Of a stretch of 64,000 nt of DNA, positions 20,181 to 40,953 are shown one piece after another (the stretch's first letter is position 1; each line of letters begins with the position of its first letter). The stretch lies in assembly GCF_002929555.1 (NCBI RefSeq), contig NZ_PJJP01000039.1, forward strand, positions 496,001-560,000, given 5' to 3'. Made by a program: the position numbers and the translations under genes. Under the pieces are notes generated by a model. It saw nothing but the letters and a program-made list of their open reading frames with translations, was not told the DNA's origin and ran no database searches. The stretch is from Cryobacterium sp. N22. GTDB taxonomy: Bacteria; Actinomycetota; Actinomycetes; Actinomycetales; Microbacteriaceae.

Positions 20181-20618
20181 TCAGGTCTTCTTCAGTTCCT
20201 CGGCGAGCATGACGATGATGCCGCTGGGGCCGCGAAGGTACGTGAGTTTGTAGATGTCCTCGTAGGTCGCCACGCCGCGTAGCGGCCGGCAGCCGTGCCT
20301 CGCGGCGATCTCAAGGGCCTTGTCGATATCGTCGACGGAGAAGGCCACACGATGCATGCCGATTTCGTTGGGCCGAGTGGGGTTCGACTCGATTGCATCC
20401 GGATGGATGTACTCGAAGAGCTCAAGGCGACCGTGACCGTCTGGTGTTTGGAGCATTGCAATTTTGGCGTGGTTGCCGTCGAGGCCGACGGCAGTGTCGG
20501 TCCACTCGCCACTGACAGTGTCACGCCCGACGACTGTGAGACCGAGGTCAGTGAAAAAAGCAATCGTCGCTTCGAGGTCCCGAACGGCAATGCCGACGTT
20601 CTCCAGTTTGATGGCCAT
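20181..20618 (-). CDS. VOC-family (glyoxalase/dioxygenase superfamily) protein
   Basis: A 145-aa protein starting MAIKLENVGIAVRD at 20618. Two paired beta-alpha-beta-beta-beta modules typical of the vicinal oxygen chelate fold are visible. Candidate metal ligands are Glu in GRLELFEYI and His in IGMHRVAFSVDD. Members act as glyoxalases, epimerases, dioxygenases or drug-binding resistance proteins; the sequence alone does not say which. Confidence 0.8.
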   Translation of the reverse strand: MAIKLENVGIAVRDLEATIAFFTDLGLTVVGRDTVSGEWTDTAVGLDGNHAKIAMLQTPDGHGRLELFEYIHPDAIESNPTRPNEIGMHRVAFSVDDIDKALEIAARHGCRPLRGVATYEDIYKLTYLRGPSGIIVMLAEELKKT

Positions 20619-20690
20619 GTAATGCACGATACCGAGAAGGGCCGAGTGGCTCCACCTGAAAGCCGGGACTCAATGGAGCGCTGATCCTCG

Positions 20691-21101
20691 TCAGTTGATG
20701 ATTTCGCCCCGCTTTTCCGCGCGGAGTGCTGCCAGGCGCACTTTCCACGCCTGTAGCGCCTCGGGCGTCTGCCGTTCCCAATCGGTCACTTCGCCGATGA
20801 CCCGCAGCGGAGCACTGCTGCGATACGACCGGGTGGGGTTGCCGGGAAACTTCTTGTCGGTCACATTCGGGTCGTCCTCGAATGCCCCGGTCGGCTCGAC
20901 GGCGTATACCCGCGGGGCGCCGTCACCCGCCGCGAGTTCCGCAGCGAGTCCAGCTCCGTTCGGAAGAGCGGTGAAGTAGATGTGATTCATCACGACCTCG
21001 GGACGGTAGTTCGACCGGAAGCCCGCCCTGAGAAGATCACCATCCCGGAGATCGGCTTTCGTGCCGTGAAAGAACGGACCCTCGTCTCGTGGTTGGCTCA
21101 C
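20691..21101 (-). CDS. arr: Rifampin ADP-ribosyltransferase Arr
   Basis: A 136-aa enzyme that transfers ADP-ribose from NAD to the C23 hydroxyl of rifamycins and so inactivates them. Family landmarks are all present: GPFFHGTKADL (His12), HIYFTAL, VYAVEPTGAFEDDPNVTDKKFPGNPTRSYR, and RVIGEV near the end. The GTG start at 21101 is supported by a 4-bp GTGA overlap with the stop of the serine hydrolase gene; the open frame runs further but would lie inside that gene. Length fits the ~140 aa of known Arr proteins. It is the second gene of an operon controlled by a putative HTH operator. Confidence 0.93.
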   Translation of the reverse strand: MSQPRDEGPFFHGTKADLRDGDLLRAGFRSNYRPEVVMNHIYFTALPNGAGLAAELAAGDGAPRVYAVEPTGAFEDDPNVTDKKFPGNPTRSYRSSAPLRVIGEVTDWERQTPEALQAWKVRLAALRAEKRGEIIN

Positions 21102-22114
21102 TGCAACAGCCCACGTTGATCGCGCTGCGGACCCACCGATGGTGCCACCATCCCGGGTGCGGCGAATTCCGTGAGGACACGAAATCCCTGTCTGTCGACA
21201 GGCCCATGACCAGCCGCGAGCACCACAGCTCCGACTCCAGCCTCCCGGTCGAGGCCGATCCAGCTGCTGAACCCCCCGGTACGGCCGTTGTGCCAGGTGA
21301 TCGTGCGGCCCCGGAACTTGAGTGTGATCCACCCCGCGCCGATACCAACCCGGGGAGTGAATTGTGAGACCGGCTCGAGTGCGGACAGACCCTGAGCTGT
21401 GCCGTCGAGGACCGAGCGGAGGAAGCCGCGCATTGTGCCTATGGTCGCTCGCACGCCTCCTGCGGGGGCAAGCCCTTCACCCACCCAAGCGGCCAGAGGG
21501 CGTCCGAATCGGCTGAATCCGGTCAGATCATCCGGGCCAAGTTCCTCCGCCCGCGCGGGAGTTGAGAACCCGGCTCCCAGGACGTCGTGCAGGAGTCGTC
21601 CGTAGCCACTCCCGGCCGCCCTCGCCACGGCGTGCCCGAGGAGTTGAAAACCCAGATTCGAGTACCTGGGTCGAGGGGCGCCAATCCGCACATTACGGGT
21701 CTGGTTGAGGAGGTCGGCGAGCGAATCACCGTAAGGGTTCTCACCTCGGATCCAGAAATCAAAGTTACGGCGCAGTGGATGCATCCCTGGCGGCAGGCCT
21801 GGAAGACCAGAGCGGTGAATGGCCAGGGAACCCAGGCTCACAGAACCAACCTCTCCGTGGCCCTCGAGCGGGAGTAATTCGCGAAGGACGGTTGCCTGCG
21901 AGACGAGACCGCGCTCCATCGCGTCCCGATACAACATGCCCGTGAGCACCTTCGAAATCGACCCGATCTCGAAGGTGGAGTCGCGATCAGTGCCCATCGT
22001 CGCGGTCAATTCGCCCTGAGGGGTGATCACCGCCACCGCTGCCGCCCCAGTTGACCGGAACGCGTGGTCCACCGCGCGAACGAGCTCAGTGTCCCCGGTC
22101 CATTCAGTCTTCAC
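21098..22114 (-). CDS. Serine hydrolase of the beta-lactamase class C / penicillin-binding type
   Basis: A 338-aa protein of the class C beta-lactamase-related fold: SxxK motif S52-I-S-K55, YxN motif Y151-S-N153, and H274-N-G276 in place of K-T-G. No signal peptide is seen, so it may be cytoplasmic, unlike secreted beta-lactamases; esterase or peptidase activity is more likely. It forms an operon with arr (4-bp overlap). A promoter and two GTCAA-N6-TTGAC operators lie upstream, shared with the HTH gene at 22238-22453. Confidence 0.85.
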   Translation of the reverse strand: MKTEWTGDTELVRAVDHAFRSTGAAAVAVITPQGELTATMGTDRDSTFEIGSISKVLTGMLYRDAMERGLVSQATVLRELLPLEGHGEVGSVSLGSLAIHRSGLPGLPPGMHPLRRNFDFWIRGENPYGDSLADLLNQTRNVRIGAPRPRYSNLGFQLLGHAVARAAGSGYGRLLHDVLGAGFSTPARAEELGPDDLTGFSRFGRPLAAWVGEGLAPAGGVRATIGTMRGFLRSVLDGTAQGLSALEPVSQFTPRVGIGAGWITLKFRGRTITWHNGRTGGFSSWIGLDREAGVGAVVLAAGHGPVDRQGFRVLTEFAAPGMVAPSVGPQRDQRGLLQ

Positions 22115-22164
22115 AAGAAAACTTCCTCTCCTGGAGTTCTCGCGACGATCAGCAACGCCGACGC

Positions 22165-22180
22165 GTCAACCATCATTGAC
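22165..22180. promoter_or_regulatory. Operator GTCAA-N6-TTGAC, copy 1
   Basis: Inverted repeat GTCAA-6 nt-TTGAC, 51 bp upstream of the serine hydrolase start. It lies downstream of the predicted -10 of that operon, where a bound repressor would block transcription. Confidence 0.7.
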
Positions 22181-22195
22181 GAATCGATTGATCAA

Positions 22196-22225
22196 ACCAT
22201 AGTCGACCCAGTCGTCGAAAGTCAA
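22196..22225 (-). promoter_or_regulatory. Promoter of serine hydrolase-arr operon
   Basis: Minus-strand -35 TTGACT (22220-22225), 18-bp spacer, -10 TATGGT (22196-22201). The -35 is formed by one arm of operator copy 2, so regulator binding would compete with RNA polymerase. Confidence 0.55.
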
Positions 22226-22236
22226 CAATGGTTGAC
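22221..22236. promoter_or_regulatory. Operator GTCAA-N6-TTGAC, copy 2
   Basis: GTCAACAATGGTTGAC, a perfect inverted repeat extending to six bases per arm. It overlaps the -35 of the serine hydrolase-arr promoter and ends 2 bp from the stop of the HTH gene. Confidence 0.75.
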
Positions 22237-22237
22237 G

Positions 22238-22453
22238 CTAGCGCTTGCCGTACTTCCGGTGGACTGCCTGCTTGCTCACACCGAGGCACTGGGCAATGGC
22301 TTCCCACGACAGCCCGGCCTGACGGGCATTGCGAACGAGGCCTGCCTCACTACGCGCTATCTCCCGATGAAGCTCAGCAACGATCTGCAACGCTTCCGCT
22401 GGCCCCTTGCTGCCCATCGATTCGACGAGGGTCTTCAGCTTGTTCGACTCCAT
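22238..22453 (-). CDS. Small helix-turn-helix regulator
   Basis: A 71-aa DNA-binding protein. The N-terminal half is a charged amphipathic helix (likely dimerisation). The C-terminal part LSWEAIAQCLGVSKQAVHRKY (about 48-68) is a clear helix-turn-helix of the sigma-70 region 4 / resolvase-like kind. It lies directly upstream of the serine hydrolase-arr operon on the same strand. Operator copies flank it on both sides, and one overlaps its own -10 element, so it most likely represses itself and the resistance operon. The transcript appears leaderless: TAGAAT lies 6 nt before the ATG. Confidence 0.85.
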   Translation of the reverse strand: MESNKLKTLVESMGSKGPAEALQIVAELHREIARSEAGLVRNARQAGLSWEAIAQCLGVSKQAVHRKYGKR

Positions 22454-22455
22454 TC

Positions 22456-22471
22456 GTCAATTCTAGTTGAC
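22456..22471. promoter_or_regulatory. Operator GTCAA-N6-TTGAC, copy 3, on the leaderless promoter of the HTH gene
   Basis: The arms extend to TTCGTCAA and TTGACGAA (22453-22474), 8 bp perfect with a 6-nt spacer. The central part contains the minus-strand -10 TAGAAT (22460-22465), 6 nt before the start codon. A bound regulator would cover the -10 and start. Confidence 0.8.
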
Positions 22472-22591
22472 GAAGGAACAGACAACCCGCACAATCCATG
22501 ACACCCGAATGGGGATCCGCACCGATGTCACTCCCAATCGGTGCGCTCAGCTGAGTCGCAATACCTGTCACGGAGCGGCGAAGAACCCGAT

Positions 22592-23416
22592 CTACTTCTT
22601 TTTCAGGGTTTTGGCATGATCGATGACGTAGTTCGTTCGTTCTCGAGGGGGCCGGTCGTAATCGTTCGCGTCTGGACGTGCGGGTATTGCCACTTTTTCG
22701 GGTTCCCGGTGCTCATACGGAATTTGTGTCAGAAGATGATTGATCGAGTTGATCCGGGACGCGCGCTTGTCATCGCTCTCGATGGTCCACCACGGGGCGT
22801 AGGAAAGGTCCGTCGCCGCGAACATGGCGTCCTTGGCACGGGAATAGTCCTCCCAACGAGTGATCGAGAAGAGGTCCGTGTCGGAGAGCTTCCACCGGCG
22901 CATCGGATCTTCCAGCCGGGAGCGAAACCGTTCTTCCTGGACTTCGTCGGAAACGGAGAACCAGAACTTGACCAGGATAATCCCGTCATCAACCAGCATC
23001 CGTTCTACCAGGGGCACTTGCTCGAGAAACAGGTGGTACTGCTCATCAGTGCAATACCCCATCACTCGTTCGACGCCACCACGGTTGTACCAGGACCGGT
23101 CCATCAGGACGATCTCCCCAGCGGTGGGTAACCGTTCGATATATCGCTGAAAATACCACTGCCCTTGCTCCCGCTCGCTCGGAGCGGGAAGTGCGACGAC
23201 TCGAGCGGAACGCGGATTGAGGTACTGGACGATCCGCTTGATTGCCCCGCCCTTACCGGCAGCGTCCCGGCCTTCAAAGATGACCAGCACCTTTGCCCCG
23301 GTTTCGATGACCCATTGCTGCATACCAACGAGCTCGGCTTGCAACCGTTCCAACTCTTGCTCGTACTTCTGCTTGGGAACACGTTTGGCGGCGCCAGACT
23401 TTTTCGACTTCGACAC
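22592..23416 (-). CDS. ppk2: Polyphosphate kinase 2
   Basis: A 274-aa class I PPK2, which transfers phosphate between polyphosphate and nucleoside diphosphates (usually GDP or ADP). Walker A is FEGRDAAGKGG (47-57), the second conserved block DRSWYNRGG (106-114), and a lid-region R-x-x-x-P-x-x-x-W-K (MRRWKLSDTDL) is present. Size and motifs match single-domain enzymes. It is cytosolic. It reads alone; the HTH gene downstream has its own promoter. Confidence 0.95.
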   Translation of the reverse strand: MSKSKKSGAAKRVPKQKYEQELERLQAELVGMQQWVIETGAKVLVIFEGRDAAGKGGAIKRIVQYLNPRSARVVALPAPSEREQGQWYFQRYIERLPTAGEIVLMDRSWYNRGGVERVMGYCTDEQYHLFLEQVPLVERMLVDDGIILVKFWFSVSDEVQEERFRSRLEDPMRRWKLSDTDLFSITRWEDYSRAKDAMFAATDLSYAPWWTIESDDKRASRINSINHLLTQIPYEHREPEKVAIPARPDANDYDRPPRERTNYVIDHAKTLKKK

Positions 23417-23617
23417 GGTGAACCCTTCAGCGATCGGCGGCGGTGGCCCAAGATCTGGCCGGGATGATCATAGATGCCGCGTGGCGGAAAGTAGAGGGGC
23501 AGCGCGTAATTTTTCCGTTCGATGGACTGGGAAACAGCCTCCGACGTGATTTACACCGTCTGCATGGATCTAGGCAGACCACACACGCTCGTTGTGACTA
23601 TTCCGGGGTGATCTAGC
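23417..23617. other. Intergenic stretch between ppk2 and the first GAF-ANTAR gene
   Basis: Divergent upstream region of ppk2 and the GAF-ANTAR pair. Apart from the ANTAR promoter described next I see no gene or clear structure here. Confidence 0.5.
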
Positions 23618-23646
23618 GTTGAATGCGCCCGTTCGAAGTCCTAAAA
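23618..23646 (+). promoter_or_regulatory. Promoter of GAF-ANTAR pair 1
   Basis: -35 TTGAAT (23618-23623), 17-bp spacer, -10 TAAAAT (23641-23646), about 67 bp before the start codon. The same -35 hexamer and adjoining bases occur in the same place before GAF-ANTAR pair 2 (50261-50289). Confidence 0.65.
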
Positions 23647-23713
23647 TTGACGCATACGGTGTCGCCCGTGATCTGGATGCCGTTCGAGCGATTAATGACC
23701 TTGGCACGCTGAT

Positions 23714-24370
23714 ATGAGTGAAGTCTCGCAAATTATCGGAAGCAAATTGACTTCCCCGTTCTTGGAGCTTCTGCCGATCACCGGTGTGGCCATTTCGGTA
23801 TTCGACCAAAATCGACGGCCCGCGATGCTTCATTCCACTGACCTCACCGCCGCGCACCTGGAAGAGCTGCATTTCGACCTGGGCGAAGGTCCTCTATTCG
23901 ACGCCTTCGCCAGCGGCTCCCTGGTTTCCATTCCTGATCTTGCCACGACCGAACGGTGGCCGGTGTTTCTTCACAATGCAGCCGAGCTCGAGGTCGGCGC
24001 CATCTTCGTTTTCCCCCTCATGTTGGGTGCAGTGTGTTCAGGGGCTGTGCTCTGTTACCGAAAGGCAACCGGACCGCTCGCCGACAGCGCCGCCGCAATC
24101 GGTACATCACTCAGCCGCGCGATTGCCGGACCGGCCTTCCGTGAAGCCATCCAACTCGCGGTCGACGAACCACCCGATGAGCTAGCCCCGATTGAGTGGC
24201 GAAGACAGGTTCACCAGGCCACCGGGATGGTGATTGCTCAACTGAATATCACCGCGACGGATGCATTCTCCCGGATACGGGCATACGCTTTTTCTAGCGG
24301 ACACACAGTTCAGGAGGTTGCTACCGAGGTAGTCACCCGGCGCCTCAATCTCGCAGAATTCCCCGAGTAG
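23714..24370 (+). CDS. GAF-ANTAR domain regulator, pair 1 gene A
   Basis: A 218-aa cytoplasmic regulator. A GAF sensor domain occupies about 15-150, and an ANTAR RNA-binding domain about 160-212 (RRQVHQATGMVIAQL ... TVQEVATEVV). ANTAR proteins bind paired hairpins in leader RNAs and prevent termination. The gene is followed after 6 bp by a second GAF-ANTAR gene. A closely similar gene of identical length lies at 50365-51021 next to narG. The ligand of the GAF domain is unknown; no heme- or metal-binding motif stands out. Confidence 0.9.
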   Translation: MSEVSQIIGSKLTSPFLELLPITGVAISVFDQNRRPAMLHSTDLTAAHLEELHFDLGEGPLFDAFASGSLVSIPDLATTERWPVFLHNAAELEVGAIFVFPLMLGAVCSGAVLCYRKATGPLADSAAAIGTSLSRAIAGPAFREAIQLAVDEPPDELAPIEWRRQVHQATGMVIAQLNITATDAFSRIRAYAFSSGHTVQEVATEVVTRRLNLAEFPE

Positions 24371-24376
24371 GCCGAA

Positions 24377-25132
24377 ATGGACATCAACGAACCGGCGCAC
24401 GACATCACCAGGGAGGCGAGAATCAACGACGCGTTTGTGCGGGTGGCCGGCACTCTGATCGAGAGCTACGACGTAGTGGAGCTCCTGTCTACGCTGTTGG
24501 ACACCTGCACCGACCTGCTGGATGTGCAGGCGGGCGGTATCTTGCTGGCCGACATCACTGGCGCGCTCGAACTAGTCGCCTCGACCAGCGAAGAAGCCGA
24601 AATCGTCGAGATCATGACCGTCGCCGCGGGAGCAGGGCCGTGCATCGAGTCCTACGACACCGGCACTGTGGTCAGCGTGCCCGACATCGATGCGAACGCC
24701 CCGACGTGGCCGCGTTTTCGCAAGACAGCGCTGGAACAGGGTTTCCGGTCTGCCCACGCCACGCCGCTGCGATTGCACGGCCATGTCATCGGGGTAATGA
24801 ACCTTTTAGGAACAAAGCCGGGAGCGCTGAGCGAACGAGACGCCCAACTCGCCCAGGCCTTGACGGATGTCGCCACCATCGGCATTCTGCACGAACGCAC
24901 GTTCCGTCAACCAGAAGTTGTCGCCGCGCAGCTCCACCTTGCGTTGGACACGAGGATCCTGGTGGAACAGGCAAAAGGCGTTCTTGCCCAATCGCATACC
25001 CTCACCATGACCGAGGCCTTCACCGCTCTCCGTGAACACGCCCACAAGCAAGGGGTCACCTTGCGAGCCGCAGCCGAAGGGGTCATAGGCCGCACCACCT
25101 CCATCGAATCGATGGCGACGCCAACCACGTAA
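24377..25132 (+). CDS. GAF-ANTAR domain regulator, pair 1 gene B
   Basis: A 251-aa protein: GAF domain at about 25-165 (with GPCIESYDTG and the GFRSAHATPLRLHG core) and a C-terminal ANTAR domain (DTRILVEQAKGVLAQ ... TLRAAAEGVIGR). It is different in sequence from gene A but organised alike, and co-transcribed with it. The two may form a hetero-complex. A near-copy lies at 51030-51788. It is convergent with the next gene. Confidence 0.9.
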   Translation: MDINEPAHDITREARINDAFVRVAGTLIESYDVVELLSTLLDTCTDLLDVQAGGILLADITGALELVASTSEEAEIVEIMTVAAGAGPCIESYDTGTVVSVPDIDANAPTWPRFRKTALEQGFRSAHATPLRLHGHVIGVMNLLGTKPGALSERDAQLAQALTDVATIGILHERTFRQPEVVAAQLHLALDTRILVEQAKGVLAQSHTLTMTEAFTALREHAHKQGVTLRAAAEGVIGRTTSIESMATPTT

Positions 25133-30975: not shown

Positions 30976-31176
30976 TTTGCTGCCATATTCTGGCCGCGCG
31001 TCAGGATCCGGTCAGCAGCGAATAAGGCGATGAAACGGCTTGTCGCATCACCGGTCGAACGTGCTGCTCACCACAAGTCCGAATTGGTATCTGGCGTCAC
31101 GATAGTGAAATTCAGTGACTGAGCCTGATAGTTGATTCGGCCTTTTCGTCCACCCGCAAGCGAGGCATAATTCCGC
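30976..31176. other. Intergenic stretch upstream of the first direct repeat
   Basis: I see no coding frame or structure here beyond the direct repeat that begins at 31177. Confidence 0.5.
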
Positions 31177-31220
31177 GGATTTCCGCGGTTTTCATGGGTC
31201 AAGTGTACGCGCTGGCACGG
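31177..31220 (+). repeat. Direct repeat, copy 1 (short)
   Basis: 44 bp containing GCGGTTTTCATGGGTC and GTGTACGCGCTGGCACGG. It also occurs, nearly unchanged, at 37948 and 40760, always in the same orientation. Here it codes the last seven residues and stop of the GNAT gene on the other strand. Confidence 0.85.
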
Positions 31221-31738
31221 AGCAGTGCGCTTGCGGAACTATCGGGGCTGAGCTTGCGAACCATGACGAGCTCGCGCTGGCCGCCTGGCGCCGCATCGCG
31301 GAGTTCCTCGGACACAGTGAAACCGTTTGTTTCGTAGGTGCGTCGGGCTGCGACATTGTCCGGCATCACGGACAGGGCGAGGGAAGCCGCTCCGGTACTC
31401 TCCGCCCAGCTCGCGATTGCAGTGATGAGCGCGGTTGCGACACCACGACCGCGAACGGCGGGGTCGACCCACATAGAGATGAGCTCGGCGCGGCCTTCCC
31501 GTTCCTGGGGTGGGGTGCCAGTGGCCATGCCGACAGGGGCGTTCCCGTCGGCGTCGACGGCCAGCAGATCGATCGCTCCGGCGATCGACAGGCGGTCACG
31601 CCAGCGGCCATCCGGTGCGTCCGCCCAGTCGCGCAAACGTGAGCCGAAGGCACCAGGCGAGTCGGTCAGCGCCGCGAGCCACACCGACCGCCAGGCCCGC
31701 CAGTCGTCGGCGGATACGGCGCGCAGCTCGATAGACAT
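31199..31738 (-). CDS. GNAT-family N-acetyltransferase
   Basis: A 179-aa protein starting MSIELRAVSADDW at 31738. The acetyl-CoA site is VDPAVRGRGVATALITA (R-G-x-G-x-A), followed by LSVMPDNVAARRTYETNGF, the classical N-A-A-R-R-x-Y-E-x-x-G-F block. The enzyme acetylates amino groups of an unknown substrate. The 3' end runs into a repeat unit found elsewhere, so the C-terminal LRASAYT may not be native. Confidence 0.87.
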   Translation of the reverse strand: MSIELRAVSADDWRAWRSVWLAALTDSPGAFGSRLRDWADAPDGRWRDRLSIAGAIDLLAVDADGNAPVGMATGTPPQEREGRAELISMWVDPAVRGRGVATALITAIASWAESTGAASLALSVMPDNVAARRTYETNGFTVSEELRDAAPGGQRELVMVRKLSPDSSASALLRASAYT

Positions 31739-37863: not shown

Positions 37864-37894
37864 GCTGGGGTACCTGGACTCGAACCAAGAACAA
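37864..37894 (-). tRNA. tRNA-Gln 3' end fragment (attachment-site candidate)
   Basis: The minus strand carries a T-arm (5-bp stem CTTGG/CCAGG around TTCGAGT) and the 3' acceptor strand TACCCCA followed by GCA, as expected for actinobacterial tRNA-Gln. The anticodon arm and 5' half are not present: upstream DNA gives only a loose D-arm-like hairpin. Such partial tRNA 3' ends are typical att sites left by integration into a tRNA gene. The intact tRNA-Gln is not in this window. Confidence 0.55.
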
Positions 37895-37947
37895 ATGATA
37901 GCCATCTGGGCTACGCCACTCCCCTGCAGCTGGGGCGGAATCCCGCG

Positions 37948-38046
37948 GACTTCTGCGGTTTTCATGGGTCTAGTGTACGCGCTGACACGGACGAGTACGG
38001 GCTCATTCTGGTCACACAGCGAGGTACCTGGTTCGTTTCTGGTCAC
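37948..38046 (+). repeat. Direct repeat, copy 2 (long)
   Basis: About 99 bp matching copy 3 (40760-40860) with a few differences and containing the 44-bp part of copy 1 (31177). It includes two further sub-repeats ending TCTGGTCAC. A third TTTCTGGTCAC lies outside at about 37783. Confidence 0.85.
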
Positions 38047-38188
38047 GGCATTGAGCTCATCCGGTGCACCAACTCCGCCCCTCCATCGTGGCTGTCGCCT
38101 TCGCATTTCATCATGAGGCGGGCTGCACCCGCCGCAGGCTGGCACGGTTCTACGCCTGGGTTGTCCGCCTCCTCGCTAGCGTCGACGA

Positions 38189-40579: not shown

Positions 40580-40759
40580 GTCGGTGCGCCAATCCTTGTG
40601 GGTGCGTGGCTGCGTCTGGTTTCCCTCATTCTCTTATCGCAGCCGTGGAACGGCGACGCAGGCCGCCCGACACAGGCCGACAGGGCGTTCAGACCGTGAT
40701 CGGTCCTGGAGCGCGGCGAAGGTCTTGTCGCCGATTCCGGTGACATTGCGGAGATCCTC

Positions 40760-40860
40760 GGATTTCCGCGGTTTTCATGGGGTCCAGTGTACGCGCTGGC
40801 ACGGACGAATACGGGCTCATTCTGGTCACGCAGCGAGGTATCTGGTTCGTTTCTGGTCAC
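40760..40860 (+). repeat. Direct repeat, copy 3 (long)
   Basis: About 101 bp, near-identical to copy 2 (37948), same orientation. It contains the 44-bp part shared with copy 1. Copies 2 and 3 bound a 2.7-kb segment with the toxin-antitoxin pair and the 39926 gene. Confidence 0.85.
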
Positions 40861-40953
40861 ACCGCCGATTGGTTCTGGGACTGCCGGTCCACTAAAGTTC
40901 GAGCCGGTGATCGCTAAGCGCACGCGCTGCCCTCGGCAAAGCGCGACCTGGGG

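What the first reader, a model, noticed from the sequence alone, without database searches (positions are those of the whole stretch)
22165..22471. Three GTCAA-N6-TTGAC operators link a 71-aa HTH protein to a serine hydrolase-arr operon
Seen: three inverted repeats with the same arms and spacing, one over the leaderless -10 of the HTH gene, one over the -35 of the serine hydrolase-arr promoter, and one between that promoter and the start. A 71-aa HTH protein is encoded between them. Inference: a compact, self-repressed switch that controls rifamycin inactivation together with a beta-lactamase-fold hydrolase. Arr genes in mycobacteria are usually not known to have a dedicated small repressor beside them.
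Basis: partly seen in the sequence, partly recalled or inferred. Interest (0 to 1): 0.72.

Follow-up and report, generated by a model that had tools for sequence, protein, structure and literature searches.

The report
Small repressor, hydrolase and captured arr
A bacterium of the genus Cryobacterium carries a tiny, probably self-controlling repressor and a serine hydrolase gene, both marked by the same DNA operator, and in this one lineage a rifamycin-inactivating gene has been joined to the end of that unit.

Summary
Three exact GTCAA-N6-TTGAC sites lie at 22165, 22221 and 22456 (0.02 expected per window). The whole genome holds only five exact sites: these three and two before a paralogous HTH gene.

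The host is Cryobacterium, not a mycobacterium. HTH, hydrolase and operators form an older unit: eight genomes of the family were found with the pair; all eight have a site ending 2 nt before the HTH start, seven have two sites 55-57 bp apart before the hydrolase. arr is adjacent only here, and 53 other arr genes lack the operator nearby. arr overlaps the hydrolase stop codon and lacks the -10-like motif found before 28 of 30 relatives. So arr looks captured; this is not a dedicated arr switch.

The HTH resembles the N-terminal domain of ClpC2, a published antibiotic-responsive autorepressor whose operator has the same arms with spacing 5 instead of 4. Short HTHs without a Clp domain carry the operator in 77 of 80 loci. 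Spacing followed the recognition helix in the 19 loci compared. This suggests that the HTH, not the Clp domain, reads the operator. Binding, repression and any inducer are inferred.

The parts
22238..22453 (-). 71-aa HTH protein, a standalone relative of the ClpC2 N-terminal domain; predicted autorepressor
   Evidence: ORF; HTH_23 22.1 bits, below its cut-off of 24.6; profile link to ClpC2-like proteins and RelI; AlphaFold model with four helices, pLDDT 89.6
22456..22471 (.). operator O1, ending 2 nt before the HTH start codon
   Evidence: exact match; kept in 8 of 8 HTH-hydrolase loci found in the family
22460..22465 (-). -10-like TAGAAT of the HTH gene inside O1, six bases before ATG (leaderless)
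   Evidence: sequence; TAGAAT or TAGTAT in the five Cryobacterium orthologues
22221..22236 (.). operator O2, over the -35 of the hydrolase promoter
   Evidence: exact match; an equivalent site in 7 of 8 loci
22220..22225 (-). -35-like TTGACT of the hydrolase promoter
   Evidence: consensus scan
22196..22201 (-). -10-like TATGGT of the hydrolase promoter
   Evidence: consensus scan, spacer 18
22165..22180 (.). operator O3, downstream of the hydrolase -10, 56 bp from O2
   Evidence: exact match; a second site 55-57 bp from the first in 7 of 8 loci, inexact in one arm in two of them
21098..22114 (-). 338-aa serine hydrolase (class C beta-lactamase / S12-like), no clear hydrophobic leader
   Evidence: Pfam Beta-lactamase E 1.5e-28; SxxK, YSN and HNG motifs in 9 of 9 sequences, the window's included
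20691..21101 (-). arr, rifampin ADP-ribosyltransferase; its GTG start overlaps the hydrolase TGA (GTGA)
   Evidence: Arr-ms E 1.3e-47; NCBIfam rifampin_ARR 159.8 bits, cut-off 130; no arr match beside the HTH-hydrolase pair in relatives
20181..20627 (-). glyoxalase/VOC-fold gene after arr; may have come with arr
   Evidence: Pfam Glyoxalase; a degraded stretch of it follows arr in Cryobacterium G030

Best explanation
The 71-aa protein is a standalone member of the DNA-binding family whose known member is the N-terminal domain of ClpC2. As a dimer it reads GTCAAC-N4-GTTGAC. At O1 it blocks its own leaderless promoter (autorepression); at O2 and O3 it blocks the hydrolase promoter at the -35 and as a roadblock just downstream of the start. 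arr was added to the 3' end of the hydrolase gene in this lineage. Relatives of this arr carry a promoter-like motif right before their start; this copy does not, and is now most likely expressed by read-through and translational coupling under the HTH-controlled promoter. Shown: the sites, their conservation, the family-wide tie of operator to HTH, the gene order and the arr junction. Inferred: binding, dimer, repression, coupling, and relief by some toxic compound or by loss of the repressor.
For: Sites and statistics. Five exact sites in 4.06 Mb, all beside HTH genes of this family. HTH-hydrolase pair in 8 genomes of the family with O1 in 8 of 8 and the O2/O3 pair in 7 of 8 at 55-57 bp; in G203 the gene order is reversed and each gene still has a site in front. 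Family-wide: 77 of 80 loci have the site within -140..+20 of the HTH match, 67 have two or more, 65 of those 27-29 bp apart; all 144 sites there have the same spacing, none the other five spacings tried; in 80 of 80 the HTH frame ends within 11 residues of the match, so none is fused to a Clp domain. Kinship to ClpC2: a profile of the short HTHs finds Clp_N-bearing proteins, one of which matches M. tuberculosis ClpC2 1-72 at E 1.7e-33 and has its operator 2 nt before the start. ClpC2 represses itself at CGTCAAC-n5-GTTGACG (PMC10030653, passages). arr capture.
Against: No binding or expression data. The 71-aa protein has no sensor domain, so the trigger is unknown. The direct match of the short-HTH profile to the solved ClpC2 N-terminal domain is weak (8ada, E 0.042), and neither structure comparison showed 8ada among its 50 rows. 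Taylor et al. assign ClpC2's DNA contact to its C-terminal domain (R185/R189). In G010 O2/O3 are missing, and in most of 20 Arthrobacter-type loci I saw no shared target gene beside the HTH. The scan marks one terminator-like hairpin at 21202-21187 on the arr strand, between hydrolase and arr (2 found, 1.9 expected), which would work against read-through. An unmapped promoter inside the hydrolase gene could drive arr.
Confidence: 0.77

Rival explanations
1. A dedicated rifamycin-responsive switch: the HTH evolved to control arr and responds to rifamycin.
For: arr lies in the same gene row, overlapping the hydrolase stop codon.
Against: The HTH-hydrolase-operator unit exists without arr in relatives; none of 53 other arr genes has an exact operator within the flanks held.
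Confidence: 0.05
2. arr only sits there: it is transcribed from its own unrecognised promoter and the HTH switch is irrelevant to it.
For: 28 of 30 relatives have a TANNNT 6-7 nt before the arr start, so this arr subtype is normally leaderless and independent. A terminator-like hairpin is marked at 21202-21187, before arr.
Against: The window lacks that motif at that place; the consensus scan found no promoter on the arr strand between the hydrolase promoter and arr; hairpins of that kind are as frequent in shuffles; start and stop codons overlap.
Confidence: 0.15
3. The operators are read mainly by another protein, for instance the 47%-identical paralogue beside the ABC transporter, so the two loci form one cross-regulated set of five sites.
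For: The paralogue's two sites have the same arms and spacing.
Against: The HTH and its site travel together: five genus genomes have the HTH-hydrolase pair with O1, and in the same search none of these five showed a match of 43-50 percent like the C36 paralogue.
Confidence: 0.08
4. A toxin-antitoxin pair: the HTH works as a RelI-like antitoxin of its neighbour.
For: RelI is the best solved relative of the HTH profile (E 1.4e-8).
Against: The partner is a serine hydrolase with SxxK, YSN and HNG motifs, not a RelE-type toxin; the RelI paper found no inverted repeats upstream of its genes (PMC13284704, passages).
Confidence: 0.03

Closest known systems
ClpC2 (Rv2667) autorepressor, Taylor et al. 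2023, PMC10030653 (passages read)
   Same: About 70-residue N-terminal four-helix domain; operator arms GTCAAC and GTTGAC; site 1-2 nt before the start codon, often doubled over -35 and -10; leaderless transcript inferred
   Different: ClpC2 carries a Clp_N-like C-terminal domain that binds cyclomarin A, and its operator spacing is 5. Here the HTH stands alone, spacing is 4, and a serine hydrolase plus arr lie under the same operators
RelI antitoxin (Rv2664, 9sdc), PMC13284704 (passages read)
   Same: Short HTH protein with partial similarity to ClpC2; matched by the family profile (E 1.4e-8)
   Different: Neutralises the RelS toxin; the authors found no inverted repeats upstream and no evidence yet of DNA binding
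arr / Arr-ms rifampin ADP-ribosyltransferases
   Same: The enzyme passes the NCBIfam rifampin_ARR and Pfam Arr-ms cut-offs
   Different: Sits as a late gene of an operator-bearing HTH-hydrolase unit; 53 others examined do not. The arr survey PMC8492726 (passages) reports no universal context
Rifamycin-associated element of actinomycetes (recalled; one search listed one paper holding the term, not read)
   Same: A cis element tied to rifamycin-inactivating genes (recalled)
   Different: As recalled a different sequence; not tested here

Membership tests
ClpC2-type autorepressor | N-terminal about 70-aa HTH four-helix domain | tested here: met
   Short-HTH profile finds 11 ClpC2-like ORFs at E 6e-8 to 1.4e-11 within the ORFs of 30 loci; the L273 one matches 8ada at E 1.7e-33; the model has four helices. 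The direct profile match to 8ada is weak, E 0.042
ClpC2-type autorepressor | Operator CGTCAAC-n5-GTTGACG | tested here: not met
   Arms largely match but spacing is 4; two of the three sites have one arm changed at the sixth or eleventh base
ClpC2-type autorepressor | Site 1-2 nt before the start codon of a leaderless gene | tested here: met
   O1 ends 2 nt before ATG with a -10-like hexamer inside; leaderless transcript inferred, not mapped
ClpC2-type autorepressor | C-terminal Clp_N-like, cyclomarin-binding domain | tested here: not met
   The protein ends after 71 residues; Pfam finds no Clp_N in the HTH protein, the hydrolase or Arr
ClpC2-type autorepressor | Represses its own gene | not testable with these tools
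   Needs binding and expression experiments
Arr rifampin ADP-ribosyltransferase | Score above curated cut-off | tested here: met
   PF12120 160.4 bits, cut-off 25; NF033144 159.8 bits, cut-off 130
Beta-lactamase-fold (S12-like) serine hydrolase | Pfam Beta-lactamase and SxxK, YxN, HxG-type motifs | tested here: met
   PF00144 100.4 bits, cut-off 27; motifs in 9 of 9 sequences
Class C beta-lactamase (AmpC) | NCBIfam bla_class_C cut-off | tested here: not met
   31.6 bits, cut-off 415
RelS-RelI toxin-antitoxin | Adjacent RelS-type toxin | tested here: not met
   The genes either side are a Beta-lactamase-fold hydrolase and a PPK2 kinase

The most novel reading that the evidence does not exclude
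ClpC2 is one fused member of a modular actinobacterial family of tiny autorepressors. The HTH alone reads the operator, the spacing of 4 or 5 being set by the recognition helix (QAVHKK against QA[A/V]Q), and the same module has been attached to different protective genes: Clp_N sponges, ABC transporters, a serine hydrolase and, here, arr. This would place ClpC2's operator contact in the HTH rather than in the Clp domain.
Probability: 0.6. Interest if true: 0.65.

Novelty: new variant of a known kind. Interest (0 to 1): 0.5.

Why it matters
ClpC2 is studied because it protects mycobacteria from a ClpC1-targeting natural product, and its contact with DNA was assigned to its C-terminal domain. 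Many 70-residue proteins without that domain carry an operator with the same arms, and its spacing follows their recognition helix. That gives a simple test of which part reads DNA, and an operator with which the regulon can be sought in other actinobacteria. The arr locus is a clear example of a resistance gene that has left its usual upstream context and joined an existing, probably regulated, unit.

Tried and rejected

Pfam and NCBIfam gave the HTH only below cut-off. Literature searches by operator letters, by 'Clp N-terminal domain', by RelI, by ClpC2 with repressor terms and by Cryobacterium with rifampicin terms: among the rows listed, no title or abstract start described short standalone HTHs with this operator. 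The lists are capped and the library lacks most subscription papers. ClpC2 with cyclomarin led on. I read passages only of PMC10030653, PMC13284704 and PMC8492726.

Plasmids: 24 records match 20600-22500, none covering 80 percent; the ten listed rows cover only the arr part, and the best one has no annotation. Rfam and tRNA scans of the window found nothing. I considered an activator role and set it aside, because the sites lie over -10 and -35 and downstream of the start.

One search kept only 80 of 556 confirmed relatives, and its search pattern itself demands QAVH. Of 61 other genomes with an arr match, 29 loci were returned and read. One search matched 58 genomes but returned 30 loci; in 11 of these the profile found no HTH. 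By eye four of the 11 (L285, L286, L288, L289) have a site a few bases from an ATG, L269 has a pair, and six look like chance sites. The neighbour grouping uses a simple ORF picker; several of its small groups are probably not genes.

Full report
Observation. The three inverted repeats are real and exact (3 found, 0.02 expected from shuffles, none of 100 shuffles reached 3; a Markov simulation of mine gave a mean of 0.05). The whole genome of 4.06 Mb has five exact sites, against one for the pattern read backwards. Three are here; two lie just upstream of a 47%-identical HTH gene on contig C36. Every exact site in the genome is therefore beside a gene of this HTH family.

Host. Two genus-mates, G007 and G010, have contigs of 365,430 and 184,381 bases, the same lengths as the Cryobacterium breve and C. 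cryoconiti records that carry the same gene at 80 and 79 percent identity. The window is thus from Cryobacterium, an environmental, cold-living genus of Microbacteriaceae (habitat and family recalled).

The older unit. Of 57 genus genomes (the window's own included), 27 have some match to the HTH and five others have a close orthologue of 79-83 percent. All five have the hydrolase next to it at 78-83 percent. Two further genera of the family add G177 and G203. With the window this makes eight HTH-hydrolase loci. O1 is exact in 8 of 8, ending 2 nt before the HTH start. Seven of eight have two sites before the hydrolase, 55, 56 or 57 bp apart; in five both are exact, in G177 and G203 one has a changed left arm. 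G010 lacks them and its hydrolase starts 40 nt after the end of the HTH match. In G203 the order is hydrolase then HTH, and each gene still has a site in front. A Streptomyces sp. SBT349 locus also has the HTH followed directly by a 53-percent hydrolase, with two sites before the HTH. The hydrolase keeps SxxK, YSN and HNG motifs in all nine; the most hydrophobic 19-residue stretch near the N-terminus averages 0.9 in the window and at most 1.5. So it is probably a cytoplasmic S12-type esterase or peptidase rather than a secreted beta-lactamase; this is inference.

Promoter geometry. O1 contains TAGAAT, in the five orthologues TAGAAT or TAGTAT, six bases before ATG. O2 supplies the -35 TTGACT, with TATGGT after a spacer of 18. 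O3 lies just downstream of the expected start of transcription. These positions fit repression at all three sites.

arr is the newcomer. None of the five Cryobacterium genomes with the HTH-hydrolase pair has an arr match (25 of 57 genus genomes do); G177 has a 55-percent arr on another contig. The other Cryobacterium arr genes are at 41-58 percent to the window's, except G030 at 91 percent. In G030 the DNA match to the window starts at window 21108, seven bases before the arr start at 21101, and runs for 431 bases at 85 percent; a degraded stretch of the glyoxalase gene follows arr there too, so the two may have moved together. Hydrolase homology with relatives ends at window 21151-21164, 50-63 bases before the arr start. 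Among 30 relatives of this arr subtype, 28 have TANNNT 6-7 nt before the start, pointing to leaderless independent expression; the window does not. None of 53 other arr genes has an exact operator, the HTH or the hydrolase in the flanks held (about 1.5 kb each side, some cut by contig ends; G011's two pieces counted as one gene; 29 of the 61 other genomes with a match were read). Against simple read-through, the scan marks a terminator-like hairpin at 21202-21187 before arr; such hairpins are about as frequent in shuffles (2 found, 1.9 expected).

The family. Of the best 80 HTH relatives in named genomes, 77 have an exact operator within -140..+20 of the match start; L156, L162 and L174 do not. 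Sixty-seven have two or more, 65 of those 27-29 bp apart; two sites lie elsewhere in 0.9 Mb (both at the hydrolase promoter of L115), and the reversed control matches once. Of six spacings tried between GTCAA and TTGAC, all 144 nearby sites have six. In 80 of 80 the HTH frame stops within 11 residues of the match end, so none is fused to a downstream domain. Neighbours were grouped by sequence for the 95 of 96 loci in which the HTH was found (the 80 and 16 others that I chose): 31 in a cluster of ABC transporters (one member, L053, looks spurious; only L045 was checked by Pfam), 11 Clp_N-type proteins at or overlapping the HTH stop (one checked), three Clp_N/polyketide-cyclase-like proteins (one checked), four hydrolases, the rest mixed or unresolved. 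In 20 Arthrobacter-type loci I saw no target gene shared by most; L117, L126 and L129 have a 207-217-aa ORF starting 26-148 nt after the HTH. The window's genome has two more distant paralogues, on C23 and C28, with related but inexact repeats in front, and a weaker match inside a longer frame on C29.

Link to ClpC2. Taylor et al. (PMC10030653; passages) showed that ClpC2 represses its own gene at CGTCAAC-n5-GTTGACG, one to two nucleotides before the ORF, often repeated over -35 and -10, that residues 4-72 form a dimeric four-helix bundle, and that cyclomarin A relieves repression. They attributed DNA contact to the C-terminal domain, from a double mutant there, and found that dimerisation matters for tight binding. 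I searched 197 genomes of the class for CGTCAAC-N4 or N5-GTTGACG: 58 matched, against four for the reversed control by my count of the table. Of 30 loci returned, 19 have an HTH of this family by profile. In all 14 with spacing 5 the recognition helix reads QA[A/V]Q; 11 of these are ORFs of 224-271 aa of the ClpC2 type (three checked, all Clp_N), two are short proteins (L279, L282), and L264 is doubtful because its sites lie 244 nt or more before the start. In all five with spacing 4 it reads QAVHKK in a short protein. L273 matches M. tuberculosis ClpC2 along both solved domains and its operator ends 2 nt before the start, as here. The loci are related by descent, so 19 of 19 is not 19 independent events. 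Still, short proteins without a Clp domain keep the operator, and spacing follows the helix, also in the two short proteins with spacing 5. The simplest reading is that the HTH reads the DNA and the Clp domain senses the compound. The RelI paper (PMC13284704; passages) already noted HTH similarity between RelI and ClpC2.

Mechanism and limits. I hold it likely that the 71-aa protein is a dimeric repressor of its own gene and of the hydrolase, and that arr now follows the hydrolase. What lifts repression is open: a partner protein that binds a compound (as the Clp_N neighbours suggest), or decay of an unstable repressor when gene expression is blocked, which would make the unit respond to many inhibitors. 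Nothing here shows a response to rifamycin. The paralogue beside the ABC transporter has the same operator, so cross-regulation of transporter and arr is possible.

Noticed in passing
G000:C36, L045 3973-6278: Paralogous HTH with two operators 29 bp apart, followed 29 nt later by an ABC transporter of 670 aa; the same arrangement in five other Cryobacterium genomes, L046-L050.
   Followed up: partly
L057 3870-5211 (own contig C23): HTH paralogue overlapping a protein with Clp_N plus polyketide-cyclase-like domains; related inexact repeats with arm GTTGAC upstream.
   Followed up: partly
L222/L108 (Cryobacterium G030): Degraded stretch of the glyoxalase gene behind arr, suggesting that arr and the glyoxalase moved as a pair.
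   Followed up: partly
window 31125-31229, 37864-38049, 40756-40861: Repeated stretch of about 100-190 bases, also found behind the hydrolase in L044; no tRNA or Rfam match in the window.
   Followed up: partly
L285, L286, L288, L289: Strict operator a few bases from an ATG, with a product that the HTH profile does not recognise: perhaps a further branch.
   Followed up: no
window 22176-22203 and 22467-22495, plus strand: Because the operators are palindromic, promoter-like matches also appear on the other strand; chance or weak divergent transcription.
   Followed up: no
window 22592-25132: A PPK2 polyphosphate kinase and two neighbouring proteins with GAF and ANTAR domains upstream of the unit.
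   Followed up: no
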